DNA from: an archaeon
GTDB lineage: Archaea; Thermoproteota; Nitrososphaeria; Nitrososphaerales; CADDZS01
NCBI GenBank assembly: GCA_902812485.1
Contig: CADDZS010000002.1
Coordinates: 1-51,970 of the forward strand
Direction: 5' to 3'
DNA length: 51,970 nt
The notes beneath the pieces are model-generated. The model did no database searches, had not been told where the DNA came from, and was given only the letters and a program-made list of their open reading frames with translations. A program made the position numbers and the translations under genes. Shown here piece by piece: positions 1,771 to 23,727 of this stretch (position 1 is its first letter; each line of letters begins with the position of its first letter).

Positions 1771-1890
1771 GGAGCGGCCTCTCTAGTCCTTAACAAAAGA
1801 GGGCCATGATAACGTAGATTAATCGCTTGTGAATACCTGCTTAGTATTCTGTGTATTCCCCCTAAAGGCTAGCGTCTTGTCCAACGATCA

Positions 1891-2112
1891 ATGAATTCCG
1901 CTTCCTGCTTAAGTGGGATGGAAAGCTCGATTTTTCGGGCAGAACATTTGCTTCAGTTCCTCAAATCTCTAACCGAGAAAAGAAAGAAACAGAGTAGCAG
2001 GGGGAGAAGGCTAGGTTCCCTCTTAAGAAAGAGATCTACAAATTTTAAAACTAAATTCAGAATCAGTTCCGTTGCTCGACAATTCTCAAGTATTCAAAAA
2101 AGCGATCGGTGA
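1891..2112 (+). CDS. possible small basic protein (73 aa)
   Basis: This is an ATG-started frame for a Ser/Arg/Lys-rich 73-residue peptide with no recognisable domain. Its TGA overlaps the GTG of the next small gene as GTGA, an arrangement often used for translational coupling, and this is the main reason to list it. No clear ribosome binding site precedes the ATG, and the sequence could be a chance open frame in the 1771-2108 spacer. Apart from this frame, nothing else was seen in that spacer. Confidence 0.25.
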   Translation: MNSASCLSGMESSIFRAEHLLQFLKSLTEKRKKQSSRGRRLGSLLRKRSTNFKTKFRISSVARQFSSIQKSDR

Positions 2113-2291
2113 AAGATCGATACTGTGTGCTGACTAAGAAGACTGAAACTCTCAAATGCGAGATCGAAGACTGTCCTGAGGATGCTCAAGTGGGGATCTT
2201 CGAAACTGGAGAAATCGTCTGCCCAAAGCACGCTGAGAGAGTCAGAAAGAAGAGGCCCCAGTGGCATATCTACGATTTCTTTAAAGAATAG
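2109..2291 (+). CDS. small zinc-ribbon-like protein (60 aa)
   Basis: The GTG-started 60-residue protein carries CEIEDC (C-x4-C) and, about 20 residues later, CPKH (C-x2-H), spaced as the two halves of a small zinc-binding knuckle. It then has a basic stretch (HAERVRKKR) and an aromatic end (WHIYDFF). It lies just upstream of the AAA ATPase gene and is followed by a T-rich stop signal, so it is probably its own short transcript. Its partner is unknown; a nucleic-acid or protein adaptor role is possible. Small size keeps confidence moderate. Confidence 0.5.
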   Translation: MKDRYCVLTKKTETLKCEIEDCPEDAQVGIFETGEIVCPKHAERVRKKRPQWHIYDFFKE

Positions 2292-2312
2292 ATGATTTCC
2301 TCTCTCTGCTCC

Positions 2313-2319
2313 TTTTTTT
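2313..2319 (+). terminator. T-run terminator after the small zinc protein gene
   Basis: A run of seven T residues lies about 20 bases after the stop of the 60-residue gene in a pyrimidine-rich stretch. Archaeal RNA polymerase terminates at such U-tracts without needing a hairpin. Confidence 0.4.
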
Positions 2320-2523
2320 AGCTGTTTGTTCCCCCTCTCCTTTATCTTTCCCTTGATGCAAGAGAGAGAAAAGGACCGACATAACGTTGAAACTCCAATG
2401 AGTTGAGGATTTTTCCTGTGAAGTTGAAAGAAAATGGATCTGCAGTACAAACCGTGAATCCATAATAACTAAACTGTCAACATAACAACAGCTATTGTCG
2501 CGCAGAGATTTCCCTGATCCAAA

Positions 2524-3687
2524 ATGTCCGCCTCGTCTGATGCACCATCAACAGAGAAAACAACCCCCCAAAAGATCCAGCATCATGTGGAGGGTTCTGG
2601 AGTCAAACTTAGTATCACTATTTCAAAGGCAAGGCCTGCAAGAAAACAGGTTGTAATACAAAGTGCGAAGGGACAAATCTACGACCTCACTCAAGGGTAC
2701 AGCTTTGACGAAAGGATCAGAGCCCTCACTCCCCAGGGGACACCAGAGTATGTGGATCATGGTGAAAAATACTTTGAGCGAATAGTCCGAGCACTTTACC
2801 ACTTCAAACAGTGCGCTCTCATCGGCCCATCTGGAACTGGAAAGACTCACATAGTCTATCTAGTCGCAGAGCTCTGTGGTCTCCCGCTCTGGGAGATCAA
2901 TTGTGGTCTTCAAACTTCTGCTTATGATCTCTTTGGAAGATATGTTGGTTTGGGCAAGGAGAACTGGGTTGACGGACAGATCGTTTCTTGGTGTAGATAT
3001 GGAGGTATCCTGTACCTTGATGAAGCGAACATGATGAAGCAAGATGTGGCGACAAGGCTGAACCCTGTACTCGACAAGAGAGGTCACCTAGTTCTTACTG
3101 AGAAGGACAACGAGATAATCCCGAGGCATCCCGCAGGTTACGTGATAATCAGCATGAACCCATATTCCTCCGAATTTAGCGGAACAAAGCCGCTGAACGC
3201 TGCGTTTCGGCGTAGGATGTCAGTTTGGATAAACTTCGACTATCTAAGCGTCGGAAGCAGAATTGCTCAAGACGAAATAGAGTTGGTTCAGAAGAGAACG
3301 AAGGTCTCAGACGAAATTGCGACCGGCATAGTAAGGGTTGGCGCGGAGCTTCGGAGAAAGTACAAAGCAGGCGAGATCCCATATGGGCCATCCATTGGAG
3401 ATCTGATAAACTGGGGAATGCTCATCTCGGATGGTCTTGATCCACATCTTGCTGCCGAGGAAACCGTTGTGGCCATGACTTCTGATAATATTGAAGTGCA
3501 GGACATCGTGCGTCGTGTCGTCCAGATGATCTTTCTGAATCCTTCTGGCTCTATCGGAGTAAGGACAAGTGAGGGGCGAGATCTGCAAGGAATTTCGCAA
3601 TCCCAACCTCTTCAAAGAACCGTCGTTGCACAAGATGCGCAGTACTCGCAGAATCAATCAGATTACAGTTCGGAAGAGCTGTTCTAA
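2524..3687 (+). CDS. MoxR/NorQ-type AAA ATPase
   Basis: A 387-residue AAA ATPase of the MoxR/NorQ/CbbQ (AAA_5) group. Walker A is GPSGTGKT (residues 101-108), Walker B is GILYLDEAN (about 161-169), and a sensor-like Asn lies in ISMNP (about 209-213) before FSGTKPLNAAFRRRM, which contains the arginine-finger region. The first about 60 residues are polar and variable. The gene lies 115 bases upstream of a NorD-like VWA protein on the same strand. That is the classic MoxR-VWA pair: the ATPase remodels or loads metal/cofactor into a client, and the VWA protein acts as adaptor. The client is not evident here. Family call is firm. Confidence 0.92.
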   Translation: MSASSDAPSTEKTTPQKIQHHVEGSGVKLSITISKARPARKQVVIQSAKGQIYDLTQGYSFDERIRALTPQGTPEYVDHGEKYFERIVRALYHFKQCALIGPSGTGKTHIVYLVAELCGLPLWEINCGLQTSAYDLFGRYVGLGKENWVDGQIVSWCRYGGILYLDEANMMKQDVATRLNPVLDKRGHLVLTEKDNEIIPRHPAGYVIISMNPYSSEFSGTKPLNAAFRRRMSVWINFDYLSVGSRIAQDEIELVQKRTKVSDEIATGIVRVGAELRRKYKAGEIPYGPSIGDLINWGMLISDGLDPHLAAEETVVAMTSDNIEVQDIVRRVVQMIFLNPSGSIGVRTSEGRDLQGISQSQPLQRTVVAQDAQYSQNQSDYSSEELF

Positions 3688-3781
3688 ATAGAAGTGTGCT
3701 TTCTGAGTGCAATTCAAGCCCTTGCTCAAACCCTCCAGATCGCGAATGGAGCAACAGATAGGAAACTTGATGCACAAGTAA

Positions 3782-3796
3782 AGGAAGGAGCGGTGG
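3782..3796 (+). promoter_or_regulatory. ribosome binding site supporting a TTG start at 3803
   Basis: AGGAAGGAG (3782-3790) and GGTGG (3792-3796) precede the TTG at 3803 by 12 and 6 bases. The frame is closed by TAA at 3779-3781 and has no other start codon in between, so the TTG is the only conventional start before the conserved N-terminus. Confidence 0.45.
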
Positions 3797-3802
3797 CCGC
3801 CC

Positions 3803-5557
3803 TTGAATCCGTCAGAATACGCGTGGAGCACGATGCAGGCAATTGCTCAGAAGGAGCCTTCCGACATAAAGGTGCTTGTCGAACAACAAATAGAATATCC
3901 CAGGCTCGAGAAGGACTCGTATGGGTATGTGCTTCGGATTCCAATACCGACGAGGCCGCGAGAAAATCTTTACTGCCTGCACGGAATGTTCTTTGATGCC
4001 GATACCAAAGGGGAAGCATCGCTATGGAGAATGTTTAGGGCATCAATCTATCATCTATGTCTCCATGCAGTTCACACCGACTTTTCGATTTACAAGAACT
4101 TGGTTGACGAGATGAACATGACAGTTGGGATGTTTGCTATCTCTCTTGTGGAAGATTACTCGATCAGAGGATTCATGAGGGCAAACTGGCCGGGGCTTGT
4201 CCTCGACACTGCCTATGCCAATCATTTGAGTGCGCTCAGATTCAAGGAGCTCAGCGCCTCAGATGAGCTTTCTGTAAAGATGGCTGCGAATCTCCTCTCC
4301 TATACGCTTGTGGGAAAACCTAGAATTTCGATTGGATCGGCACTCGGGCAGCAGATAAAGACGCTTTGGTCGAGACTGGTAGAGATAGATGCCGGTGCTT
4401 ATCACTTGGCGCATCTGGCTCGTACGCGCAATGTCTCTGAGATCGAAAAGGATCAGAAAGCATTCAACAAAAAGAAGGTAGAGACTGCGCAGCGAATCAT
4501 TGAAACTTTTGAGGATCAATCCGCGTATCTCAACTCTTGTCCATCCTTTCCCTACACGGATAATTACGGCCCGAACTTCCTTTTCCCAAATTCTATACTT
4601 ACTGCGAGCCCAGAGGAAAAGATGAATGTTCTGAATGATGCCTGCAGAGTGTTCTCTATTGATTCAGCAGAGAGCAAGCTCGCGGAGACAGACAAAGTGC
4701 TTGAAACAGAAAGCTCGAACATACTGGCGGATTGGGATAGGTCTGCAAGTGTCAAGCAGAGTCTGATCGAGTCTTATAGAAGGCTCGATCCACATTCTCA
4801 TTTTGAGGGTTTTCTCTTCCCCAAAGAGGACTTTGCCGAATACGTTAGGACGAGGTCCAAATTGATTGGTCCCATAAGACTTATTCTTGATCAGCTCAGG
4901 ATGATTAAATCAAGTGCCGACGAAGTTCAAGGACAAGAGTCAGGGTACGTCGACCTTCCAACAGCCGTCCAAGTTTTGGCATCGGGCAAGCAAAACAACG
5001 ACATCTTCGTGAGAGACATATTGTCTACCAAAAGCGAAGCCTGGGCAATTTTGATAGATTCGAGCAAGAGTCTTGAAAATATTCAAGGGGCGGTCAAGGA
5101 TGTCGCAATTTGTCTTTCAGAGGTAGCAAAGGATCTAATTCCAAACCAGAACTCATGGGCTTGCTATGCTTTCGACGAAAGATTTCACATAGTGAAGGAT
5201 TTCAGTGAAATTTACGGAAATGAGTGCAGGGCAAGAATTGGAGGGCTCTGCAATGGAGTGAAGACCTATCTACCTGATGCGATGAGGTTAGCGGCAAAGA
5301 GGCTTGAGACTTCGGGAGAAGAAGTAAAAGTTCTCCTTGTGATATCCGATGGTTTTCCTCTGGGGTACGAAGGAATAGATAACGACTCGGTTGAAGCGTT
5401 GAAGAAAATCGAAAAATCAGGGATGTATGTTATAGGCATTGGAATTTGCAGTTCATTCTTGAAGAAGCATTTCAAAATGAGCTGCAATGTTGAGAGTCCG
5501 TCCGATCTCATGAAAAATTTCGTGAGAATATATATCGAGACCTCAAACACTTTCTAA
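3803..5557 (+). CDS. NorD/CobT-like VWA-domain protein
   Basis: A 584-residue protein. The first half (about 55-170) carries a NorD/CbbO-like segment with LVEDYSIRGF and a following PGL. The C-terminal von Willebrand A domain (about 410-584) has the metal-ion-dependent adhesion site: DSSKS (D419, S421, S423), a Thr in NGVKTYLPDA (about 487) and an Asp in VISDGFP (516). No signal peptide or membrane helix is visible, so it is probably cytoplasmic. It is paired with the upstream MoxR-type ATPase. By analogy with NorQ-NorD and CbbQ-CbbO, the VWA domain would link the AAA ring to a client through a bound divalent metal. Its 3' end overlaps the convergent gene by 15 bases. Confidence 0.88.
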   Translation: MNPSEYAWSTMQAIAQKEPSDIKVLVEQQIEYPRLEKDSYGYVLRIPIPTRPRENLYCLHGMFFDADTKGEASLWRMFRASIYHLCLHAVHTDFSIYKNLVDEMNMTVGMFAISLVEDYSIRGFMRANWPGLVLDTAYANHLSALRFKELSASDELSVKMAANLLSYTLVGKPRISIGSALGQQIKTLWSRLVEIDAGAYHLAHLARTRNVSEIEKDQKAFNKKKVETAQRIIETFEDQSAYLNSCPSFPYTDNYGPNFLFPNSILTASPEEKMNVLNDACRVFSIDSAESKLAETDKVLETESSNILADWDRSASVKQSLIESYRRLDPHSHFEGFLFPKEDFAEYVRTRSKLIGPIRLILDQLRMIKSSADEVQGQESGYVDLPTAVQVLASGKQNNDIFVRDILSTKSEAWAILIDSSKSLENIQGAVKDVAICLSEVAKDLIPNQNSWACYAFDERFHIVKDFSEIYGNECRARIGGLCNGVKTYLPDAMRLAAKRLETSGEEVKVLLVISDGFPLGYEGIDNDSVEALKKIEKSGMYVIGIGICSSFLKKHFKMSCNVESPSDLMKNFVRIYIETSNTF

Positions 5558-9437: not shown

Positions 9438-11801
9438 TCAGCCAGTCGCGAAATTCTCCCTTTCCCTGAGAGCCTTAAGAACTTTCTCAGGGGTCATAGG
9501 TAGCTCGAACAGCCGAACTCCCACGGCGTCGTATATTGCATTCGCTATCGCGGCCGGGGTTGGGATACAACCGTGTTCTCCAAGCCCCTTTGCTCCAAAT
9601 GGACCAGCAGGATCTGGCTCTCCAATGAAATGAATTTCTATCTCGGGCACTTCCAGGCTAGTAACTATCTTGTAATCGGCAAAGCTGGGGTTCACAACCA
9701 TTCCTTCTTCGAGATCAAGCTTTTCGAAGAGCGAGTAGCCCAACGACATTATGATTCCTCCTTGAATCTGGCCTTCTGCGCCGTTGGGATTGAGTATCCT
9801 TCCTGCATCGTGAACTGCCACGACTTTCAAAACTTCGACCTTTCCCGTTTCCTCGTCGACCTCAACGAGTACAGCTTGCGTACCAAAAGCGTAAGTCGCA
9901 GAGATGTTGCCCTCGTATGTTTCGGGGTCAGCCATGCGTGTTGGAGGATCATAGAAGGCGCTTGCCATTATCATTGTGCCTTTTTCCCGAAAGTGAGCCT
10001 GCCTCAACATTTTCGAGTATTCCACCCTTTTGCGAGGGTCCAAAAGGGAAAATATCTCCCCGTTCTTTATGTCGAGATTTTTTTCGTCTTCAGAAAGAAA
10101 CCTGCTCGCAATCCTAAGCAGCTGATTCTTTGCATCTCTTGCCGCAAGGAGAGCAGCGTTTCCCCCAATGAAGGTCCCCCTGCTGGCATGTATCCCCACG
10201 TCCCAAGGCTTGAGCGCAGTATCATTGTTAATCAGGACGACTTTAGAAATCGGTACGCCCAGCTCCTCAGCAACAACTTGAACAATGGCAGTGTCAGAGC
10301 CTGTGCCTATTTCTGACATCCCGGTGAAAACTGTTACTCGTCCGAAATCGTCGATCTTGATCATGGTACCACAACCATCTGATCTGTAAACTCGCGCTCC
10401 TCCGGCCACATGGAACAGGGTTGCAAATCCAATTCCCCTCTTCTTCGAGGACGTATCTGTCGAAAGGAGACTCTCGCTTCTCCTTCCCCTCCATCCTATC
10501 CTCTTGCTCGCAAGTTTCAGGGTCTCTTCCATTGCACAAGTAGTGATTCTCATTCCCTGGCAAGTTACGTCATCAGGCCTGTTTGCATTTCGAACTCTGA
10601 GTTCGATGGGGTCAACTCCAAGCTTTTCTGCGAGAATGTCCATCTGGGATTCGATTGCGAATGTGATCTGTGGGTTTCCAGCACCTCTCATTGTGCCAGA
10701 AGATGGATTGTTCGTGTAAACAGGGTAGGCGTCAAATTGAACATTCTCGATCCTGTATAGGCCTGTCGAAGTTGCCATCATCACTCGGGCATCGAAGGCT
10801 CCCCACGAGAGGTAGGCTCCGATATCCAAGAAAACTTCAACCTTCCTTGCGACGAGTTTTCCTTCTTTTGTTGCTGCGGTCTTGATTTGTATTATTGCTG
10901 GCTGACGTGTCGGCGAACAGCTAAGATCTTCTTCTCGAGAAAGGACAATCTTCACAGGTCTACATGTTTTCATGGAGAGAAGAGATGCTATGATGTCAAC
11001 CGAATACAGATCCATCCCCCTGCCAAAGGATCCTCCAATGTATGGCTGGATCACTCGCACTCTTTCGCCCGGTATGCCGAGAGCATCAGCAAGCTCCCTT
11101 TGATACATGAAAGGCGCTTGAGTATTCGCGTATATCGTAAGTATGCCGTCAGCCCCGTATGACGCAAGGGCACCCATAGTTCCAAGTGCAGTATGAGTCA
11201 TAAAATGTAGCCTAAAGGTGTCTTCGACAGTAACAACATCTGCCCTTGAGAACATCTTGTCAGGATCCCCTGCTTTGAAATGGAAGGAGACGTTCGGCAT
11301 GTTCCTCTTAGCTTCTTCGTGAAGATTGGGTGCGCCTTCCTTCATCGCTTCGATCGGATCAAAGACCGGTTCCAGATTTTCATACTCTACTTCGATTAGT
11401 TCAAGCGCTTTAAGTGCGATTTCCTCTGTCTCTGCCGCCACGGCCGCTACTTCGTCTTGATAAGAGAGCACTTTGGAATCTTTGAGCGGAAGATTGTCCT
11501 TCATGAATCCGAACTTGATCTTCGGCGTGTCCTCTGCAGTTATCACAGCATAGACCCCCTCAAGCTTCCTAGCTCTCTCGGTGTCTATCTTGAGGATTCT
11601 AGCATGCGGCCTTCTACTTCTCAGAATCTTGCCATATAGCATTCCTGGAAGTTTGAGATCAATCAAGTATTGCGCCTTTCCAGTAACCTTCTCAGAAGAG
11701 TCATATTTCGGAACTCTTTTCCCAATCACATTGAACCTCTGTGCTTCAAGATCAGAGCCAATTTCTTGGGACATTTCTTCTTCATGGGCAAGGCTAGGCA
11801 T
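9438..11801 (-). CDS. xanthine dehydrogenase / CO dehydrogenase family Mo-binding subunit
   Basis: A 787-residue large subunit of the molybdenum hydroxylase family (xanthine dehydrogenase, aldehyde oxidoreductase, CoxL, 4-hydroxybenzoyl-CoA reductase alpha). Seen: the N-terminal ald_Xan_dh_C hammerhead domain (about 35-140), the Mo-pterin motif regions GGSFGRGMD and GTMRGAGNPQ, and the C-terminal GAKGLGEHG whose Glu (about 742) is the catalytic base. The active-site loop lacks the AYRCSFR cysteine motif of true CO dehydrogenase. The FAD and 2Fe-2S subunits normally encoded next to it are absent here, so it either uses partners encoded elsewhere or forms an atypical enzyme. ATG start at 11799-11801 with a G-rich SD-like stretch upstream on the minus strand. 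Confidence 0.9.
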   Translation of the reverse strand: MPSLAHEEEMSQEIGSDLEAQRFNVIGKRVPKYDSSEKVTGKAQYLIDLKLPGMLYGKILRSRRPHARILKIDTERARKLEGVYAVITAEDTPKIKFGFMKDNLPLKDSKVLSYQDEVAAVAAETEEIALKALELIEVEYENLEPVFDPIEAMKEGAPNLHEEAKRNMPNVSFHFKAGDPDKMFSRADVVTVEDTFRLHFMTHTALGTMGALASYGADGILTIYANTQAPFMYQRELADALGIPGERVRVIQPYIGGSFGRGMDLYSVDIIASLLSMKTCRPVKIVLSREEDLSCSPTRQPAIIQIKTAATKEGKLVARKVEVFLDIGAYLSWGAFDARVMMATSTGLYRIENVQFDAYPVYTNNPSSGTMRGAGNPQITFAIESQMDILAEKLGVDPIELRVRNANRPDDVTCQGMRITTCAMEETLKLASKRIGWRGRRSESLLSTDTSSKKRGIGFATLFHVAGGARVYRSDGCGTMIKIDDFGRVTVFTGMSEIGTGSDTAIVQVVAEELGVPISKVVLINNDTALKPWDVGIHASRGTFIGGNAALLAARDAKNQLLRIASRFLSEDEKNLDIKNGEIFSLLDPRKRVEYSKMLRQAHFREKGTMIMASAFYDPPTRMADPETYEGNISATYAFGTQAVLVEVDEETGKVEVLKVVAVHDAGRILNPNGAEGQIQGGIIMSLGYSLFEKLDLEEGMVVNPSFADYKIVTSLEVPEIEIHFIGEPDPAGPFGAKGLGEHGCIPTPAAIANAIYDAVGVRLFELPMTPEKVLKALRERENFATG

Positions 11802-11999: not shown

Positions 12000-14276
12000 T
12001 CAAGAGAATTGCACTGGCTCGATCTTGACTGCGCTTGCGGGAATCGTCCGTCCATCTTCATCATAACGTGAAGTCAAAGCGTACCCTCTCGGAATAAAGC
12101 TCACTATGTTTTCGAGATATCTAGGCGAAAGGCCACTCCTGAAACCAGCTAGCTCGTCTCGGATCACTTTCTCGCCTGACAGCCGCTGAAGTATTTCAAG
12201 GCAATCAGAACCCAAGAACTCGCGGATCTGAGATCTCGATGTTGCCAATATAGAATTCCCTCCGCCTTTGAGACTTTCTAAAATTTCATGGCACTTCCGT
12301 TTGAGGCTCTCGCTCTTGAAACGATCAAGTGAATCTTCTAAGACTATTACCGAATTTCTGAGCTTCAAATTCTGAAAAAACTTGAGTAAGAGAAGAGAGC
12401 ATATTTCTCTTTCTTCCCTAGTTGTTAGGTCCTTGAGCCCTCTGCCCGATAGGTCGAACAAGAAACATTGTCCATTTTCCTGTTTCAATACATCCTTCAG
12501 TTGGTCAAAGACGGTCGAAGACGAGAACGCTTTTGCAGCTGTTGGTCTAGCAACAAGATTTTTAGAAATTTTCTGACCAATTTGAGTAACTTCAGGCTCC
12601 GCAATAATTGAAGAAGCAATCTGTGAAAGGGAAACAGAATCTAGGTCTGATCCAGATTGAAACTTGTTCCTAACAATGGAGGCTATTCTTGCCCGTTGCT
12701 GATCTGTGCAACTCACGCCTGTCTCGAAGCACCATTCTTGAATTAAATCTGCAAGAAATTCAGCCCCCGCGCTCCTCCAATCTTCTTTGTCTTCTTCTTC
12801 TTTCTCCCTTGATCCCGAGACTATTCCAAGTATCGGGATGGAAAACTCCTTGGCTTGAGAATCACCCGCAAATGCAAACACCTGCCATCCGTACTTCCAA
12901 GCGATCCCTCGGTGCTCTCCCTTCTGGTCAACGACAACCACCTTTGTAGAGTCTCTTAGCGATCCAAGGCCATCGAGTAGCTTCCGGAGCGTGGTGCTTC
13001 GTCCAGAACCTGACGAGCCAACAATCGCAACTCCAAGCCTTCTAATAGTTGACGCGCGTAAGTAGTAGTCTCCAGTGAACTTTACAGCTGCCGCGATTTC
13101 GTTCTCTGGCAACTTTCTCGTAAGCACCTTGAGAAATTGATCCATTTCGATTGTTTTACCAAGGAGAATCGAATCCTTTTCCGCAACTCTTGCGGCCTGC
13201 TCCTCAATTTTCTCTCGTCGTGCTGCTTCTACTTCCGTACTGACTTGTGTGCGTTCCTGTTGTACTACTGAAACCTGCTTCTCGAGTTCCAGCCTTTTCC
13301 TTGTCTTCGCCTTTTCTTCTTCTTGAAGAAGCTCTCTCCGCCTTCTCTCAGCTTCAGCTTCTCTCAGAGACCTTTCTCTTTCTTCTTCCTCCTCCTTCTC
13401 TTGTTTTAGGAACAAGACGACTTCGTCAAGGAGGATTGGTGCCATTGCAATGTATCGTGCGGACGGGATATTTGCAAAGTAGTTCGCAAACTCTTCAGGA
13501 ATATCCACCCCCTTATCCATCACACCAGATTTTTCGATGAGCTCCAAAAGGAATGCCCGCTCTGATTGCCCAAGCTTTCTGTTTTCCTTTAGCTCTTTTA
13601 GCTGCGACAGCAGTACTCCCTCGGAGGGAAGCGAAACCCTCTCTATCAGGATATCTGCATTTTCCTTTGCAAAGAAAGAAGGAACCCAGATTGAGTAGTC
13701 TCCTGAGCTCGATTTGAGAAGCAACTTGTTGAAGATACCCTTCTCGACAACCAGATTTTCAAACCTGAGCTCTCGCATCAAAGGCGATTCGGCTTTCACA
13801 GCTGCAAAGAATCTTTCAAAATCTTCTCCGCTAGAAACAAGCGATTTTCCAAATTCGGATCGAAACACTATTTCAGTTGTGGATCTTCGAATGAGCCTTA
13901 GGGTTGCGTCAATTGCTCTTCGCTCATCCATATTCATGTGAATGAACCGTTCAGCAATTGACGATATCATCACGCTAGAGACGCTTCGAAGCTCAGAAAT
14001 TAGGGCACTTTTGACTGCTTCCACATCTTGGTTTGCCACAGCTAAGAAATTCGAAATATCATTCTTTGCATTTGTAGCAGCCCTCTTCGATGCGATTTCC
14101 GGAAATCTCTGTGACAGATTCGAAAGAATTGCTTCAAAGACCGATTCAAGACTTTGAAGCTCGAGCTTGCTTATTGGACTGTCAACGAATTCGCTGTACG
14201 CGTCAAGCTGGGCTGGAATCTCTTTGTACCTATCAACTGCGAAATGAACAAGCTGTTGCAAATCTGCCAAAGGCAA
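12000..14276 (-). CDS. HerA-like P-loop protein with coiled coil and degenerate Walker A
   Basis: A 758-residue protein. Residues 1-285 are an alpha-helical domain of unknown type. Residues about 290-370 form a strongly charged coiled coil (runs of Glu/Arg). The C-terminal part (about 375-758) has the HerA/FtsK-like layout: P-loop GSSGSGRST (420-428), VVVDQKGEH (about 447-455), Walker-B-like VIVLEDSLD (643-651) and SILATSRSQ (about 675-683), matching the sensor strand after Walker B. The invariant Walker A lysine is Arg426 (CGA codon), which would normally weaken or abolish ATP hydrolysis. A second, canonical HerA-type gene is present at 27248-28945. TTG start at 14274-14276, preceded by GGGAGAG. 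It may be a structural or regulatory partner of an active ATPase rather than a motor. Confidence 0.8.
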   Translation of the reverse strand: MPLADLQQLVHFAVDRYKEIPAQLDAYSEFVDSPISKLELQSLESVFEAILSNLSQRFPEIASKRAATNAKNDISNFLAVANQDVEAVKSALISELRSVSSVMISSIAERFIHMNMDERRAIDATLRLIRRSTTEIVFRSEFGKSLVSSGEDFERFFAAVKAESPLMRELRFENLVVEKGIFNKLLLKSSSGDYSIWVPSFFAKENADILIERVSLPSEGVLLSQLKELKENRKLGQSERAFLLELIEKSGVMDKGVDIPEEFANYFANIPSARYIAMAPILLDEVVLFLKQEKEEEEERERSLREAEAERRRRELLQEEEKAKTRKRLELEKQVSVVQQERTQVSTEVEAARREKIEEQAARVAEKDSILLGKTIEMDQFLKVLTRKLPENEIAAAVKFTGDYYLRASTIRRLGVAIVGSSGSGRSTTLRKLLDGLGSLRDSTKVVVVDQKGEHRGIAWKYGWQVFAFAGDSQAKEFSIPILGIVSGSREKEEEDKEDWRSAGAEFLADLIQEWCFETGVSCTDQQRARIASIVRNKFQSGSDLDSVSLSQIASSIIAEPEVTQIGQKISKNLVARPTAAKAFSSSTVFDQLKDVLKQENGQCFLFDLSGRGLKDLTTREEREICSLLLLKFFQNLKLRNSVIVLEDSLDRFKSESLKRKCHEILESLKGGGNSILATSRSQIREFLGSDCLEILQRLSGEKVIRDELAGFRSGLSPRYLENIVSFIPRGYALTSRYDEDGRTIPASAVKIEPVQFS

Positions 14277-14809: not shown

Positions 14810-15601
14810 CTAGCCGAGAAATCTCTCGGCGTAAACAGTAACTCCCTTCTCAGTTATTGAGTAGGGATGAAGCTGCCTATCATGTTTGCATTCTCTCATC
14901 TTCTCGATTTCCAGAGCAGAAACCACCCCACGTCCGGCGAAATGCGAATTATGTAGAACAATAACTCCATGGCACAAATACTCTTCCGGAGGGATCTCCC
15001 TCGTAGTTATTCCGCCGCCGAAACTGGGACCGATTTCGCTCGTCACTATGCTGGTTGTCCCCATGCTCACAAGAGAATCAAGGAGATCTATAATCGCAGC
15101 ACGCCTGTTTTGTTCGTCTGGAAATTGTAGCGCAAGAGAAGTCATTGGATCAACGACGATTCTCGTGGCACGTGTTACTCTGACGTAGCTTCTTATTACG
15201 GTACTAAGAGCTTGAATCGAAAATTCTGGTCCACGAATATGGACAGACGAATTTTTCGAGTCCTCCCTTAAGTGGACTGCTTCTTCTTGCTTTATGGAAG
15301 ATCCGATTTGTCTCAGTGGAGAGGCATCTACAATGGCGAGCTGATTCTTCTTCTCATACTTTTCAAGATCCCAGCCAAAATTTTGCATCTCATTCAAAAG
15401 ATGAAACCTGCTTTCTTCAAGCGAAACAAACACGCCCCTCTCATCGAATCTTTCAACACCGTCGATGAGAAATTGCATTGCCATGATTGTCTTTCCCGAA
15501 CCCGGGCCCCCTGTAACCAAAATCACCCTACCTCTCGGATATCCACCTCCGAGAAGCTCATCAAGTCCAGGAATCCCACTCGGTACATGTTCAGACTTCA
15601 A
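14810..15601 (-). CDS. KaiC-like RecA-superfamily ATPase
   Basis: A 263-residue single-domain KaiC-like protein. It opens with the family signature VPSGIPGLDELLGGGYPRG, then Walker A GGPGSGKT (31-38), FVSLEES (about 58-64) with the two acidic residues typical of KaiC, and a Walker B-type strand TRIVVDPMTSL. Archaeal solo-KaiC proteins bind and slowly hydrolyse ATP and act as regulatory switches. An insertion at about 100-125 (rich in Glu, Ser and His) separates the core strands. It is the first of three KaiC-like genes within 7 kb and is transcribed away from the helical-repeat gene. TTG start; an ATG is not available before the conserved motif. Confidence 0.88.
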   Translation of the reverse strand: MKSEHVPSGIPGLDELLGGGYPRGRVILVTGGPGSGKTIMAMQFLIDGVERFDERGVFVSLEESRFHLLNEMQNFGWDLEKYEKKNQLAIVDASPLRQIGSSIKQEEAVHLREDSKNSSVHIRGPEFSIQALSTVIRSYVRVTRATRIVVDPMTSLALQFPDEQNRRAAIIDLLDSLVSMGTTSIVTSEIGPSFGGGITTREIPPEEYLCHGVIVLHNSHFAGRGVVSALEIEKMRECKHDRQLHPYSITEKGVTVYAERFLG

Positions 15602-16212: not shown

Positions 16213-19200
16213 TTGCTCAAAAGGTGGCAGGCCATAAAGGCGCGTATTGTGTCTGATTCAGAAAAATCTTCCTCAATAATGGGAGAGGGCGAAAAGCTAG
16301 GCGCTACAAAGCACTTATCGGATTATTCTCTGTATTCTTATCCTCAGCGAGGAGAGGAATTCTTTGAACTTTTTTCTCGGATATCAGCGCTCTCCAAGGA
16401 AGCAAAGAAACAAGGGCAAGCCCTCGCTTTCTTTAGAAAATCGAGAGAAATTCTTGAAGATAGACTAAAGAAATGTTATGAAACTAAGAGCCGAAGAGAA
16501 GATGCTCTTTCTCTTCTTCCTTGCTATCATTCTTTGCTGGCTCTTGTTCTCTGGCTTTATCCAAATCATATTGGATTCAATAAAGCAAAGCAAGCGTCAT
16601 TGATATTTCAAAATGCAGTAGCTGCTGTTACGACATCTGGTCCGCGTAGGGACATGCCCTTTGCTTTGGGTTTAGCCATCCAACTAAGGATTCTTCCCTT
16701 CCTTGTTCGCGCAAAGAAAGTTAACGAAGATCGTTTGCATGAAACGAGAAAAATTGCACTCGACATAGTTGGAAAATTTGAAACACGGGATCAACCTTTA
16801 AGCACTATTGAAGAAAACTCCTCCCATTCTTCGTTCCCTGTGACTTCGCTATCATATAATCCAGCCGATAGGACCCAAGTGCCAGAAGCTGGTATGCTGG
16901 GAATAATTTACGATGGCCTCGGATTTTCATACTATCAGTTCGAAAGAAACAGGGAACGATCAATTGCCTTTTTGAAAAGGGCGACTAGTTTGATTTCCCA
17001 AGAGCTGAGATATCTTGCCCGAACAGCTCGGTCTAGCAAGCAGAGGAAGACAAGCGGTAAATGGAGAAGAAAGAATCTTGCTACGGTTTTTCCTCACTAT
17101 TTGTTCTACAAATGCTACGCGCCTGTACCCGAGATGGCTCTTGGCCTGTGTCATGAATACTTGGCAGAGAACGTCGAAGGAGAAGAAATGATTGTTCGTG
17201 TCAGAACTTCCAGGTTTCACTACAAAAGAGCTTACGAACTCGCGAAGAAAACTCCTTGGCATGTTTACAAGGCTATGATCGCCTATAATCTCGCCGGTAC
17301 GTACTGGCGGGAAAGCGAGTACCAATCTGATAAGAGAAAAGTAATCGATCTGTTGAAGAAAGCCGTTTCGATAGGAGAGGAGTCTCTAAGGTGGGCTACA
17401 CTCTGGACTCCTTTTGAGAGGGATATTCTTGGAGGATCTTGGATAGCAAGCTTCTATCAAGCTCTCGCGCGACATTCACGACCAAAGGATCAAAGACGGC
17501 TCATGGCAAGATCTATTGCTCTTGCTAAAAGAGCTCAGGAGCAGCTCAAACGTGGGGGCTTCGCAGCCTCGAGGTACGATGCAGTCAACATTGGAGATGT
17601 ATTCTACCACACATCTGAATATTACCGAGATGCTGCTTCCAAGGCAGTGGAAAGCGAAATTGGCATTTCTTCCCAAAGCTCAAGGTTTTCCAGAGAAAAA
17701 GTAAGGCAAGAGTCGGAAGAAACAAAGTCAAGACGCTCGATTCTTACCAAATCTCTGGAATTCGCGGCGAAGTCATTGAAGTTCTACAAAGAGGAAAGAT
17801 ACGAAAAGAGGGCAGTGGATGCAAGGCTGCTAGCTTCGGCGGTCTGTCATGAGCTAGAGAAGTTCAAGGAATCGCAATCGAATAGTAGCCCGTATGGAAG
17901 AATGGCAAAGCACCACTTGAGTAAGGCCTTGAAACTATGTCAAAAAAACAATTGGAATGAAAAACTTGCGGAATCTTATTGGTTGATGGGGCAGATACTC
18001 GACGTGAAAGGAGACTTTTTGGGTAGTGCCTCATTTTTCTCTAAGGCCCGTGAAGCTTACGAAGCTGCGAGAGTTGCTTCCGAAAATTCAAGGGTATACC
18101 AAGGATTTGCTAATTTCATGCAGGCTTTGAACAAAATCGAACTCGCGAAGGAAGCACACAGATCTTCAAATTTTGAGCTGGCTTCAAAGAGCTATGCAGA
18201 GGCGGCCAAGTTTGTAGCACTTTCGCGAAGATGGGAGCACAGAGCCCCCGTCTTGAGGGCAGAATCTGTAATAGAGGAAGCTGAGAGAGCTTCTTCTAGC
18301 GAAGATTTTGAATCATCTCTTAATTCTTTCAGAAAAGCAATCGAGATCCTAACGAGGTTCAAAGAGGATGTAGGCAGTCAGAAAGGGTGGTCGGAAGATA
18401 TCGACGAGCTGGAGAGGCAAAGCGACGTTCTAATCAAGTTCTGCAAAGCGAGAATAATGCTTGAAACATCAAAGCATGCCTACCAAGTGGGAAATCTTGA
18501 ACAGTCAATATCAGAGCTGAAATCCGCGGAGGAAATGTTTCTTTCACTTGCCTCAAATTCTGCAATCTCTTCAGATCCGCTGAAAGCAAGCGAACTTAGA
18601 ACACTAGCTTCTCTTTGCATCGCGTTAAGCGCCTTTCAGAGAGCGCAACAGGAGAACAACCCTGGACTTTATGTCAAAGCTAGGGAAATTTTCGAAGGTG
18701 CAGCTGAAACTTCCTCCTCTAAATACCTTAGAGCACTTCTCTTGGGGCTTTCAAATTTTGCATCTTTCCTTTACAGCTCTACTTCGCTCGAGAGCAGTCT
18801 CGAAGGCTCGTTTGATGTTCAGAAGGTTATTGAATGCAATAAGAGCCTTGATCGCTCAGAGCTTATGTTTCGAAGGGTGGGAAATAGATCATTTCTTAAT
18901 TTGTTGCGAGCTTCGAAGCACATCTTGGATGCAACGATCAAAATGAGCGCAGCTGAGAGAGAAATTGAGAATCCCGAGCTCAAGGCCTCTCTGTACTCAC
19001 AGGCACAAAAGTCGCTATCTTATGCTTCACGATATTATGAATCACTTGGGGCTTCAAAGCGGGTCAGGGAAGCTTTGAAAATGGTGACAGCCGTTAGAAA
19101 TCATCAACGACTCCTTCCCCTTGCTCACGACATTATAGCAGAAGTAGCATCTTCTCAAATCATCTATTCAACGATCTCCACTTCGTCGCTTCTAGATCAG

Positions 19201-19959
19201 ACTCCTAGCTCTGCGGGGCGAGCTGCAGGTTCAGCTTTCATTGCTCTTGATGTGGAAATCCCGCAGTCGTACTTGACTACAGACGAGGAATTTTCTTATT
19301 ACATCTATCTTTCAAACTTGGGTCTAAAACCGGCGGTTGCATTCAGGATGGATGAGGTCGCCCCGGAAGGTTTTGAGATTGTCAAAGCTCCGTATCCAAT
19401 TATAGCCGGAAGATCTTTGAAGCTTAATTTGAGAATAGACCCTTCATCCGAAAAGAAGATCGCGTTGCAGCTGAGACCTCTTTCTTCAGGCGACTTTGTC
19501 TGGCACCCTTCGCTTATTTATCTGGACGAGGGGCGAAACTACAGAGCAACGAAACCACAGACAGTCAGGGCAGTCATCGAGTCGCCAGGACTAAATCTAG
19601 AGGTCGCTCTCCAAGAGAAAGAGAAACTCGAAATTGAGCTTGGAAAATTTTCGGAGAAACTTGAGGAAGTTTCGAATAAAGGCATCGGTATGGGGCAATT
19701 GAATTTCAGTGAGGAGTACTATTCACTCAAAGAAAAGATTTCTGCAATAGATGAAATGATAGCGAGGACAAAGAACGAATACCAATCGCTTCAGTCCGAG
19801 CTTGAGAAGATCCGCAGTGACATATTGTCTTTAAGGCAGAGCGGAAGAGAGGATCCTGAATCCGAAGCACAGAGAACGGATCTGGAATTTCAGGAAAGGC
19901 TCATTTTAGCGAAGCTTGAAAGGAGGAAGAGACAATTAGAACAAGCACATCTATTGTAA
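16213..19959 (+). CDS. giant helical-repeat (TPR-like) protein with Ig-like and coiled-coil C-terminus
   Basis: A 1248-residue soluble protein. Residues about 40-1000 are a long array of amphipathic helix pairs with TPR-like character (for example AESYWLMGQILDVKGDFLGS and ALSAFQRAQQENNPGLYVKA). At about 1025-1130 there is an all-beta segment with QSYLTTDEEFSYYIYLSNLG and SEKKIALQLRPLSSGDF, resembling an Ig-like/CARDB-type domain. Residues about 1135-1248 form a charged coiled coil. No enzyme motif was seen. Its last 25 bases overlap the frame of a KaiC-like ATPase, so the two are almost surely co-expressed. A scaffold for KaiC-like switches is my inference. The frame opens with TTG; an ATG 22 codons in is an alternative start. 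Confidence 0.85.
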   Translation: MLKRWQAIKARIVSDSEKSSSIMGEGEKLGATKHLSDYSLYSYPQRGEEFFELFSRISALSKEAKKQGQALAFFRKSREILEDRLKKCYETKSRREDALSLLPCYHSLLALVLWLYPNHIGFNKAKQASLIFQNAVAAVTTSGPRRDMPFALGLAIQLRILPFLVRAKKVNEDRLHETRKIALDIVGKFETRDQPLSTIEENSSHSSFPVTSLSYNPADRTQVPEAGMLGIIYDGLGFSYYQFERNRERSIAFLKRATSLISQELRYLARTARSSKQRKTSGKWRRKNLATVFPHYLFYKCYAPVPEMALGLCHEYLAENVEGEEMIVRVRTSRFHYKRAYELAKKTPWHVYKAMIAYNLAGTYWRESEYQSDKRKVIDLLKKAVSIGEESLRWATLWTPFERDILGGSWIASFYQALARHSRPKDQRRLMARSIALAKRAQEQLKRGGFAASRYDAVNIGDVFYHTSEYYRDAASKAVESEIGISSQSSRFSREKVRQESEETKSRRSILTKSLEFAAKSLKFYKEERYEKRAVDARLLASAVCHELEKFKESQSNSSPYGRMAKHHLSKALKLCQKNNWNEKLAESYWLMGQILDVKGDFLGSASFFSKAREAYEAARVASENSRVYQGFANFMQALNKIELAKEAHRSSNFELASKSYAEAAKFVALSRRWEHRAPVLRAESVIEEAERASSSEDFESSLNSFRKAIEILTRFKEDVGSQKGWSEDIDELERQSDVLIKFCKARIMLETSKHAYQVGNLEQSISELKSAEEMFLSLASNSAISSDPLKASELRTLASLCIALSAFQRAQQENNPGLYVKAREIFEGAAETSSSKYLRALLLGLSNFASFLYSSTSLESSLEGSFDVQKVIECNKSLDRSELMFRRVGNRSFLNLLRASKHILDATIKMSAAEREIENPELKASLYSQAQKSLSYASRYYESLGASKRVREALKMVTAVRNHQRLLPLAHDIIAEVASSQIIYSTISTSSLLDQTPSSAGRAAGSAFIALDVEIPQSYLTTDEEFSYYIYLSNLGLKPAVAFRMDEVAPEGFEIVKAPYPIIAGRSLKLNLRIDPSSEKKIALQLRPLSSGDFVWHPSLIYLDEGRNYRATKPQTVRAVIESPGLNLEVALQEKEKLEIELGKFSEKLEEVSNKGIGMGQLNFSEEYYSLKEKISAIDEMIARTKNEYQSLQSELEKIRSDILSLRQSGREDPESEAQRTDLEFQERLILAKLERRKRQLEQAHLL
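19919..19937 (+). promoter_or_regulatory. strong SD sequence followed by an ATT codon
   Basis: AAAGGAGG (19919-19926) lies inside the end of the helical-repeat gene, 8 bases before ATT at 19935. The KaiC-like frame is closed by TGA at 19917-19919 and contains no ATG, GTG or TTG until 20016, which falls after the conserved KaiC N-terminal signature. ATT is therefore the best-placed start codon. Confidence 0.5.
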
Positions 19960-20669
19960 AGAGCCTAATCAAAGGAATAGAACAACTCACCTTCGGAGGA
20001 TTCCTTCCTAGTGGATTGAATCTTTTGTGCGGGACGAGCGGCTGTGGAAAGACAATTTTCTGTGAGCAGTACGCCTTTGAGATTTTGAAAAAGGGCGGCA
20101 AGGTCATCTGGATTACAACCGAAGAGCTGCCCACAAGTATAAGGGAAGGAATGCTACGCTTTGGATGGGATGTCGAGCCATTTGAAGAGAGTAGGAAATT
20201 TGTGATCCTGGATGCAGCTAGTCCTGCAAGGCTCGGGCTATCTGAAAACGTTGGTCACGGAATGCTTGGACTGGACCCGACAGGAATGCTCATTGTTATC
20301 ACCGACCAGCTGCGCTCTTCACAAACCGAAGAAGAAGATCCGGAGAAGTTGATCCTTGTCTTAGACTCTGTATCGCGTTTGTTGCTTTCCTGCGAGTACA
20401 AGGCTGTGATAGACTTTGTTGCTTGTCTCAATTCCAGACTGGAAAATTTTCGAGTGAGAGGTTTAGCCACTGTGTGTGAAGGCGCTCATGAGGACAAGGC
20501 GCTGAATTCACTTACTTTCTCTTGTGCTGGAACCATAAAGTTCAGGATACGCGAGGAAGGGGACTTGAGGGTTAGACAGTTTAGGATAGATTCCCTACGG
20601 GGAAGATCTCACGACGACAGGTGGAGGAATTATTCGCTTACTAACTCCGGGGTAGACATCGAGATCTAA
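19935..20669 (+). CDS. KaiC-like RecA-superfamily ATPase with non-canonical (ATT) start
   Basis: Read from ATT the product has 244 residues and begins with a KaiC-type N-terminus, TSTSIVKSLIKGIEQL, where family members have STGIPGLDELLGG. Walker A is GTSGCGKT (33-40), followed by VIWITTEELPTSI with the KaiC-type paired acidic residues, and a Walker B-type strand KLILVLDSVSRLL. If translation instead began at the TTG at 20016 the N-terminal strand would be lost. It overlaps the helical-repeat gene by 25 bases and lies 42 bases upstream of the next KaiC-like gene, so the three probably form one operon. It is more divergent than its neighbours and could be a non-hydrolysing partner. Confidence 0.8.
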   Translation: MRTSTSIVKSLIKGIEQLTFGGFLPSGLNLLCGTSGCGKTIFCEQYAFEILKKGGKVIWITTEELPTSIREGMLRFGWDVEPFEESRKFVILDAASPARLGLSENVGHGMLGLDPTGMLIVITDQLRSSQTEEEDPEKLILVLDSVSRLLLSCEYKAVIDFVACLNSRLENFRVRGLATVCEGAHEDKALNSLTFSCAGTIKFRIREEGDLRVRQFRIDSLRGRSHDDRWRNYSLTNSGVDIEI

Positions 20670-20711: not shown

Positions 20712-21485
20712 ATGATGGAAAAGGAAACTAAGGTAAGCTACAGGGAAGGAAGGGCAAGCCATGCGGGGATGACAAGTCGAGTAAAGACTGGTATAGACGG
20801 CTTCGACGAACTAGTGCTAGGTGGCTTTCCAAGAGGAAATTCCATCTTGGTTACTGGTGGAACTGGGACAGGAAAGAGCACCTTTGCACTTCAGTTTGTC
20901 TACAAAGGGGCCAAGGTCTATGATGAAGCCGGAATCTACGTGACCCTTGAAGAATCTATCCCTTCAATCATCAAGAATGCGGCCTCATATGGATGGGAAA
21001 TCGAGGATCTAGAACAGGCTGGCAAGCTTGCGATGATTGATGTTTCACCAGCAGTTAGTGGACAACTCCGTAAAATCAGTCCCACTGATATTTACTCCAA
21101 TGTTTCGCAGATATGCAAGAAGATCGGAGCTAAGAGAATAGTTGTTGATCCAATAACGGTTATGGGAATGCAATTTGAGAGCTCGGTTGACATGCGGCTC
21201 GACTTGCTCCGCTTTGCAAGTTTGCTGAAACAGCTCGAGGCAACAGTCCTCTTTGTAACTGAGATCTCGGAGGAGAGCCAAGCCCTCAGTCGCTTTGGCA
21301 TCGAGGAGTTCATCTCTGATGGGGTCGTGGTGCTATACTATTCGAAAGTAGGGGGATTGAGAGTTCGCGGTATAGAAGTGAGGAAGATGAGAGGAACAGC
21401 TCACAAGGAGGGCATATTTCCAATAAAGATGGGAGAGACTGGGCTCTCCGTGTATCCATCGGCAAAAGTACCCAAGCTGAGTTGA
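20712..21485 (+). CDS. KaiC-like RecA-superfamily ATPase
   Basis: A 257-residue single-domain KaiC-like protein with VKTGIDGFDELVLGGFPRG (about 24-42), Walker A GGTGTGKST (49-57), YVTLEES (about 76-82) and a Walker B-type strand KRIVVDPITVMGMQF. The DPIT segment is shared with the 14810 paralog (DPMTSLALQF), while the 20 kb paralog differs. The C-terminal part (RVRGIEVRKMRGTAHKEG) matches the KaiC signature for the end of the core, which usually contacts the neighbouring subunit. It starts with tandem ATG codons 42 bases after the preceding KaiC-like gene. The protein probably works as an oligomeric ATP-dependent switch; its output partner may be the NitrOD5-like protein downstream. Confidence 0.9.
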   Translation: MMEKETKVSYREGRASHAGMTSRVKTGIDGFDELVLGGFPRGNSILVTGGTGTGKSTFALQFVYKGAKVYDEAGIYVTLEESIPSIIKNAASYGWEIEDLEQAGKLAMIDVSPAVSGQLRKISPTDIYSNVSQICKKIGAKRIVVDPITVMGMQFESSVDMRLDLLRFASLLKQLEATVLFVTEISEESQALSRFGIEEFISDGVVVLYYSKVGGLRVRGIEVRKMRGTAHKEGIFPIKMGETGLSVYPSAKVPKLS

Positions 21486-21688: not shown

Positions 21689-22033
21689 ATGAGTGCAGAT
21701 TTATCATTAAACGTAGATTCGGATTTTTCAAGGATACTGCGTTTGGTAGTTTCCGAGACACTCGACAGTTTTGGAGAAGGCGTGAAGACAGTTGTCCTCT
21801 TTAATTTGGGTCAGAAGTTCAATGCTTCTTCAGAGGATGTACTGTGCAACCCGGCGCTTCTCGAGGCTGGCCTGAGAGACATCTTCGGAATGGGCTCTGG
21901 GCTCATTGAGGAAAAGATAACACAGACAATATGCGACGTATTGAAAGTGGATCCAAACGAGCTCCATGGCAATTTCGAAGAGAAAATGGAATCCATAAAG
22001 CAAAGGGCTAGAATTAGGAGAAATATGCCCTGA
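21689..22033 (+). CDS. NitrOD5-like output-domain protein
   Basis: A 114-residue helical protein matching my memory of the NitrOD5 ('Nitrosopumilus output domain 5') pattern: VSETLDSFGEGVKTVVLFNL, then an acidic/hydrophobic stretch, then LRDIFGMGSGLIEEKITQTI. Such domains are expanded in Thaumarchaeota, alone or fused to signalling modules. It follows the KaiC-like operon by about 200 bases on the same strand. That suggests, without proving, that it is an output of the same pathway. The last 25 residues are basic (KQRARIRRNMP). Good confidence it is a gene, moderate on the family. Confidence 0.72.
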   Translation: MSADLSLNVDSDFSRILRLVVSETLDSFGEGVKTVVLFNLGQKFNASSEDVLCNPALLEAGLRDIFGMGSGLIEEKITQTICDVLKVDPNELHGNFEEKMESIKQRARIRRNMP

Positions 22034-22833: not shown

Positions 22834-23727
22834 TCAAATCCGGGAGCAATTCCGCCAAATTTCTTCCAGGACCCGGCGAGTGGAGCGTGCGAACGCGATG
22901 TTCTTTATCCAAATGGCTATGGAATGGTTGCTCTCTTTTGAAAGAGGATCTGGAACACCAATGAGAACGTTTTGGGAGTCGGCGATCATCATGTCAAATA
23001 ATATGTTCTCAGAGCTCTTGATCTCTACGCCTGCATCTTTCACGGCTTTGATTTCTTCATCCTTCAGCTTGGCATCCTTGGGCACGATTAATTTGATTGA
23101 CTTGGAGGACGACGGTTGGTCTTGAGATGAATAATTCATTCTGTTGAATAACAGAGGAAGGAAGACATCCCTTCTTTCAATAGATCTCTTTGCAACTAGG
23201 AATACATCGTGAGATTCATCGAGAAGTTCAGAGAAAGCGTTGGCAATCGAATTAAGCCCCTTCAGGACAGATATTTGAGATTCACTAGGTCTCAGCCTTC
23301 CATTGTCTGAAAGTCTTGTGCTAGAAAGATTTTCGAGCGCGGCAGTAAGCGTTTTCTCGGCTGATCTTCTTTTCATTTGATCCTGGAGGTACTGCTCTTC
23401 GAATTGGAGAATCCTTCCCTTGAGCGCTTCAGCAGGTTTGATTGGAAGAAAATAGCCTTCTTCTTCCTCCTCCTGTTTTGCAACAAAGCCCTTTTCCATG
23501 AGCGTGTCTAAGGTATCGTATACACGGGGAAGAGGAATACTAGCGTTCTGAGAAAGCTGCTTTGCATTTTGAGCACCCTTCTTCACTAGAGAAATATAGG
23601 CTCTTGCTTCGTATCCCGAGAGCTTGAAACTATCTTTGAGAGAAGCTTCGAGTGCGCCCTCCTGGATGTAACTACTTGAATTCCCATTACTTGGGAAATT
23701 CTTTGTCTTCTTTCTCTCTTTCTTCAT
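22834..23727 (-). CDS. TrmB-family transcriptional regulator
   Basis: A 297-residue TrmB-type regulator. The winged-helix domain (about 28-100) reads FKLSGYEARAYISLVKKG, then RVYDTLDTLMEKGFV as recognition helix and turn. A coiled linker (about 110-155) follows, then a C-terminal effector-binding domain of the phospholipase D-like fold (HDVFLVAKRSI, NILFDMMIADSQNVLIGVPD, and SIAIWIKNIAFA at the end). TrmB proteins sense sugars or other metabolites and switch transport and central-metabolism genes. The effector and targets are unknown. ATG start in ATGAAGAAAGAG on the minus strand. Confidence 0.9.
   Translation of the reverse strand: MKKERKKTKNFPSNGNSSSYIQEGALEASLKDSFKLSGYEARAYISLVKKGAQNAKQLSQNASIPLPRVYDTLDTLMEKGFVAKQEEEEEGYFLPIKPAEALKGRILQFEEQYLQDQMKRRSAEKTLTAALENLSSTRLSDNGRLRPSESQISVLKGLNSIANAFSELLDESHDVFLVAKRSIERRDVFLPLLFNRMNYSSQDQPSSSKSIKLIVPKDAKLKDEEIKAVKDAGVEIKSSENILFDMMIADSQNVLIGVPDPLSKESNHSIAIWIKNIAFARSTRRVLEEIWRNCSRI

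What the first reader, a model, noticed from the sequence alone, without database searches (positions are those of the whole stretch)
12900..13060. HerA-like ATPase with Walker A lysine replaced by arginine
The P-loop reads GSSGSGRST (R426, codon CGA), while the rest of the HerA-like core is recognisable and the gene is intact. Lys to Arg normally cripples hydrolysis. A conserved substitution would make this a pseudo-ATPase or dominant partner of the canonical HerA at 27 kb. The long charged coiled coil and unknown helical N-terminus also differ from known HerA proteins.
Basis: partly seen in the sequence, partly recalled or inferred. Interest (0 to 1): 0.55.

Follow-up and report, generated by a model that had tools for sequence, protein, structure and literature searches.

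The report
Archaeal HerA-like protein, crippled ATP site
A family of archaea keeps a HerA-like motor protein whose ATP-burning site carries a conserved arginine in place of the usual lysine, plus other losses, so it probably grips ATP as a switch or scaffold rather than burning it as fuel.

Summary
ORF 12000-14276 (-), 758 aa, reads GSSGSGRST at residues 420-428; R426 is codon CGA at 12999-13001. It is not an error: 8 of 9 genomes held for this archaeal family have the gene, and all 8 P-loops carry Arg (CGA 1, AGA 3, AGG 4), with at least 3 synonymous changes on the tree and no return to Lys, one base away from AGA/AGG. The ninth genome's contig ends inside the neighbouring gene. The other DUF87 paralogues examined in these genomes, 24 of 24, keep Lys. 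The second Walker B acid is Asp instead of Glu (7 of 7) and the arginine-finger position is Leu (7 of 7); the DxxGE aspartate is kept (8 of 8). In Sulfolobus HerA, K154R and R381K lost ATPase and E356D kept about one fifth (PMC4351679, passages). Best reading: a lineage-specific HerA-like pseudo-ATPase that probably binds ATP but hardly hydrolyses it, usually encoded beside KaiC-like ATPases and a giant helical-repeat protein. The proposed partnership with the 27-kb protein is unsupported; that protein is not the NurA-linked HerA. Function was not tested; structure models were too poor to use.

The parts
12000..14276 (-). HerA-like protein with Walker A arginine ('HerA-R'), 758 aa, TTG start
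   Evidence: orthologues
13407..14276 (-). N-terminal domain, about residues 1-290, helical in the low-confidence model; matches no library family; the part shared with the distant relative G018
13176..13409 (-). charged helical (coiled-coil-like) linker, about residues 290-367
   Evidence: low-confidence model; a carboxypeptidase-regulatory-like domain lies there in G018
12993..13019 (-). Walker A / P-loop GSSGSGRST, residues 420-428
12999..13001 (-). R426, codon CGA, in place of the Walker A lysine
12912..12941 (-). VVVVDQKGEH: strand 2 with the HerA-type DxxGE motif; D450 corresponds to HerA D176 by motif and by spacing in the 27-kb paralogue (inference)
12333..12338 (-). Walker B acidic pair E647-D648 (E-E or D-E in intact HerA-like proteins)
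12270..12272 (-). L669, the arginine-finger position by counting back from the T-Q/T-S motif; Leu in 7 of 7
12234..12254 (-). SILATSR: strand after the finger helix; TQRP of HerA-like proteins replaced by TSRS
14810..15601 (-). KaiC-like ATPase, P-loop GGPGSGKT intact, upstream neighbour
9438..11801 (-). molybdopterin oxidoreductase large subunit (xanthine dehydrogenase family), downstream neighbour
16213..19959 (+). 1248-aa helical-repeat protein (weak TPR and spectrin matches), divergent neighbour
20016..20669 (+). second KaiC-like ATPase (GTSGCGKT)
20712..21485 (+). third KaiC-like ATPase (GGTGTGKS)

Best explanation
A conserved HerA-like pseudo-ATPase. Shown: Arg fixed in the Walker A motif, Asp at the catalytic Glu position, Leu at the arginine-finger position, with the glycine-rich loop, the P-loop serine and the DxxGE aspartate kept. 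Inferred: the site still binds ATP but hydrolyses it very slowly or not at all, so the protein, alone or as a ring, stays in an ATP-bound or ATP-gated state and works as a scaffold or nucleotide sensor through its N-terminal and coiled-coil parts. Inferred more weakly: in most species it serves in the signalling assembly of KaiC-like ATPases and the giant repeat protein encoded beside it.
For: Arg in 8 of 8 P-loops, three codons, at least 3 synonymous changes. All 24 other DUF87 loci examined have Lys. Walker B E-D in 7 of 7; finger position Leu in 7 of 7, with no Arg conserved at the next position either. In Sulfolobus HerA, K154R and R381K lost ATPase and E356D kept about one fifth; five of six point mutants could not be established in cells that still had chromosomal HerA (PMC4351679, passages). 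RecA K70R lost ATPase but not completely ATP binding (PMC9769622, passages). The KaiC neighbour is kept beside it in 7 of 8 genomes. KaiC-like ATPases as archaeal signalling hubs: as cited in PMC5847659 (passages); the primary paper was not held.
Against: No assay and no reliable model (mean pLDDT 41 and 47). G006 keeps the gene with Arg but has neither the KaiC neighbour nor the repeat protein at the cut-offs used, so these partners are not always needed. The finger position rests on a sequence alignment that gaps in this region.
Confidence: 0.6

Rival explanations
1. The site binds no nucleotide; the P-loop is kept only for folding or for another contact, as in the degenerate domain of EccC5.
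For: Several catalytic elements are lost together. The EccC5 DUF domain is a related-superfamily example that binds no ATP (PMC11154593, passages).
Against: EccC5 lost the glycines and both Lys and Ser/Thr; here G, G, G and S are invariant and the loop is among the best-kept stretches at about 50% overall identity.
Confidence: 0.2
2. A working ATPase in which Arg and Asp are tuned together, perhaps with Arg or another residue supplied by a partner.
For: Arg is chemically close to Lys; HerA E356D kept about one fifth of activity; the DxxGE aspartate is conserved.
Against: HerA K154R alone had very low or undetectable activity; the arginine-finger position is also lost.
Confidence: 0.15
3. A dominant partner or inhibitor of the 27-kb HerA-like protein.
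For: Both genes lie on one contig in the window, in G001 (12 kb apart) and in G007 (14 kb apart). Mixing K154A into wild-type HerA 1:1 almost abolished unwinding (cited in PMC4351679).
Against: The cores are very divergent: 58 alignable columns. The 27-kb protein lacks the N-terminal half seen here and is not the NurA-linked HerA.
Confidence: 0.05

Closest known systems
HerA (HerA-NurA DNA end-resection ATPase; DUF87, PF01935)
   Same: P-loop region matches DUF87; DxxGE motif, Walker B strand, finger helix and following strand recognisable in order
   Different: Walker A K to R, Walker B E to D, finger R to L, TQRP to TSRS; different N-terminus; no NurA beside it
HerA-like protein of the same genome at 27248-28945
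   Same: DUF87 core with a GSSGSG P-loop and DxxGE
   Different: intact Lys, E-E pair and RxGRK finger; C-terminal helix-turn-helix match; no long N-terminal domain
Degenerate ATPase domains of EccC/EssC (FtsK/HerA superfamily)
   Same: catalytic residues lost within an FtsK-type fold, with a non-motor role proposed (PMC11154593, passages)
   Different: there the P-loop itself is lost; here it is kept with a single fixed Arg
Inactivated KaiC-like domains ('iKaiC') of archaeal signalling
   Same: an inactivated RecA/ASCE-type ATPase near KaiC-type signalling genes (PMC5847659, passages)
   Different: here the altered ATPase is HerA-like, and the three KaiC-like neighbours keep their Lys

Membership tests
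HerA/DUF87 superfamily (PF01935) | Profile match above the curated cut-off | tested here: met
   24.7 bits against 23.2, residues 406-459; 27.1 bits
HerA/DUF87 superfamily (PF01935) | DxxGE motif after strand 2 | tested here: met
   DQKGEH in 8 of 8
Active HerA ATPase | Walker A lysine | tested here: not met
   Arg in 8 of 8
Active HerA ATPase | Walker B catalytic glutamate | tested here: not met
   E-D in 7 of 7
Active HerA ATPase | Arginine finger (R381) | tested here: not met
   Leu in 7 of 7 by counting back from T-Q/T-S; the alignment here is not certain
HerA-NurA system | NurA gene nearby | tested here: not met
   The only NurA found in the genome is on C27, beside another DUF87 protein
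HerA/DUF87 superfamily (PF01935) | HerA fold and hexameric ring | tested here: inconclusive
   Models too poor; Foldseek best hit VirB4, E 0.013, TM 0.24, not usable; oligomeric state not tested
Pseudo-ATPase | No hydrolysis, with or without ATP binding | not testable with these tools
   needs a bench assay

The most novel reading that the evidence does not exclude
Evolution has fixed in nature the 'K-to-R' mutant that biochemists make to trap RecA-type motors in the ATP-bound state: a HerA-type ring turned into a permanent ATP clamp, serving as receptor or scaffold of a KaiC-based archaeal signalling complex. The distant relative G018, which keeps Lys but has Asn at the catalytic Glu position, suggests that hydrolysis was lost before the Lys-to-Arg change.
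Probability: 0.25. Interest if true: 0.6.

Novelty: new variant of a known kind. Interest (0 to 1): 0.42.

Why it matters
K-to-R in Walker A is the standard laboratory way to separate ATP binding from hydrolysis. A lineage in which Arg is held by selection, although Lys is one base away, gives a natural test of what an ATP-bound, non-cycling HerA-type protein is good for, and points to an unstudied archaeal assembly with KaiC-like ATPases.

Tried and rejected
Sequencing error or a one-genome oddity: rejected, Arg in 8 of 8 genomes by three codons.

Decaying pseudogene: rejected, none of the 9 family matches contains a stop and the motifs are kept.

Canonical HerA of HerA-NurA: rejected.

Wider orthologues: order 9 of 400 genomes (the 8 plus G018). 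Class sample, 10 of 400: four family genomes, G018, and five f9 genomes that match at positions 403-462 only, VirB4-like by my reading. Phylum sample, 3 of 398: the own genome and two ordinary HerA-like proteins with Lys. So the gene is confined to this family plus one distant relative in what was sampled.

Structure: full length (pLDDT 41) and ATPase part (pLDDT 47), both with a two-row alignment, were not usable; the Foldseek hit to VirB4 is not taken as evidence. Strand and helix order would fit a HerA core, but at low confidence.

Degenerate-codon DNA pattern for the Arg P-loop: 3 of 41 genomes hit, one of them by this gene; uninformative.

Literature on natural Walker A arginines: searches gave nothing directly comparable in their listings; two searches returned no papers. 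This is not proof of absence.

Two of the 34 family DUF87 hits (G006:C107, G007:C32) were not fetched and their P-loops were not examined.

Full report
The finding. The gene at 12000-14276 on the minus strand codes for 758 residues and is intact. GSSGSGRST lies at residues 420-428; R426 is CGA at 12999-13001. Pfam gives DUF87 (HerA central domain) at 24.7 bits, just above the cut-off of 23.2. PADLOC's mad8 model matches residues 416-680, P-loop to beyond Walker B. No Pfam, NCBIfam or PADLOC match lies within residues 1-247.

Conservation. Of 9 genomes held for the family, 8 have the gene. In the ninth, G002 (70% complete), the KaiC-like neighbour is cut by the contig end, on the side where this gene would lie (KaiC at C160:3-410, repeat protein at 1145-4513), so its absence is probably a gap. 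G003's copy is split over two contigs; one piece covers the P-loop. All 8 P-loops have Arg. Codons: CGA 1, AGA 3, AGG 4. The tree needs at least 3 codon changes, all synonymous, while AGA and AGG are one base from Lys codons. L012 (JARCRS010000183.1, 'archaeon isolate Maxine3') matches the G005 contig in length and coordinates and is not counted again.

Paralogues. The 9 genomes gave 34 DUF87 hits, 30 of them as loci. The 6 belonging to this gene have Arg; the other 24 have Lys. Of the 4 without loci, 2 are this gene in G007 and G001 (Arg) and 2 were not examined. The own genome has 4 DUF87 proteins; the one next to NurA is on C27. The 27-kb protein is a separate group with an intact P-loop lysine, EEADRF and RRGRKRG in 6 of 6 aligned members.

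Other active-site parts. An alignment of 7 full-length or C-terminal copies, G018 and seven ordinary HerA-like cores gives: Walker B E-D in 7 of 7, where the ordinary ones have E-E or D-E; Leu in 7 of 7 at the finger position, counted back 11 residues from the T-Q (here T-S) motif; at the next position K, H, R, L, R, R, R, so no Arg is fixed there. MAFFT places gaps in this region, so the finger assignment is less sure than the other two. The DQKGEH aspartate is kept in 8 of 8.

Experiment elsewhere. In Sulfolobus islandicus HerA, K154R and R381K lost ATPase, E356D kept about one fifth and D176E one seventh; five of six mutants gave no transformants even with chromosomal HerA present (PMC4351679, passages read). 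The natural protein thus combines the equivalents of K154R and E356D with a lost finger. B. subtilis RecA K70R lost ATPase but not completely ATP binding (PMC9769622, passages). Hence the prediction: ATP bound, hardly hydrolysed.

Distant relative. G018 (another family of the order) has a 742-aa protein that shares the N-terminal domain (E 1.3e-26), with GDHHTGKS (Lys), Walker B E-N, and a carboxypeptidase-regulatory-like domain in place of the coiled coil. This suggests, but does not prove, that the catalytic Glu was lost before Lys became Arg.

Surroundings. Downstream on the same strand comes a molybdopterin oxidoreductase subunit in 6 of the 6 genomes whose contig extends that far; upstream a KaiC-like ATPase in 7 of 8; the divergent repeat protein in 6 of the 7 whose contig extends that far. 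G006 is the exception: the gene next to it is the homologue of window 22834-23727, and neither the KaiC neighbour nor the repeat protein was found in its genome at the cut-offs used. All three KaiC-like neighbours in the window keep Lys. KaiC-like proteins as archaeal signalling hubs, some inactivated, are described in PMC5847659 (passages).

Taxonomy. The window is archaeal by its relatives. A Nitrososphaeria (Thaumarchaeota) origin is my inference from genome sizes and gene content, not tested.

Verdict. A real, selected, lineage-specific change in a HerA-like protein; most likely a pseudo-ATPase. Function is inferred, the partnership with the 27-kb protein is unsupported, and the structure models were not usable.

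Noticed in passing
L055 (G007:C4 near 49994): The G007 copy of the 27-kb HerA-like group (983 aa) has a large insertion inside Walker A, ending ...VTHN before SGKS, which looks like an intein.
   Followed up: no
L021:9889-12117: Distant homologue in another family with a carboxypeptidase-regulatory-like domain where the coiled coil would be, Lys in Walker A and Asn at the catalytic Glu position.
   Followed up: partly
window 16213-19959: Giant 1248-aa repeat protein present in 8 of 9 family genomes, with weaker relatives in family f10 (G105, G183); no NCBIfam or PADLOC match and only weak Pfam matches.
   Followed up: partly
window 21689-22033: Small 114-aa protein beside the KaiC genes, with relatives of 27-31% identity in two genomes; resembles archaeal death-domain-like output domains by eye only, no Pfam support.
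   Followed up: partly
L016:1-4100 (G006:C81): The KaiC to NUDIX block is missing between this gene and the homologue of 22834-23727, an apparent clean loss of the cluster.
   Followed up: partly
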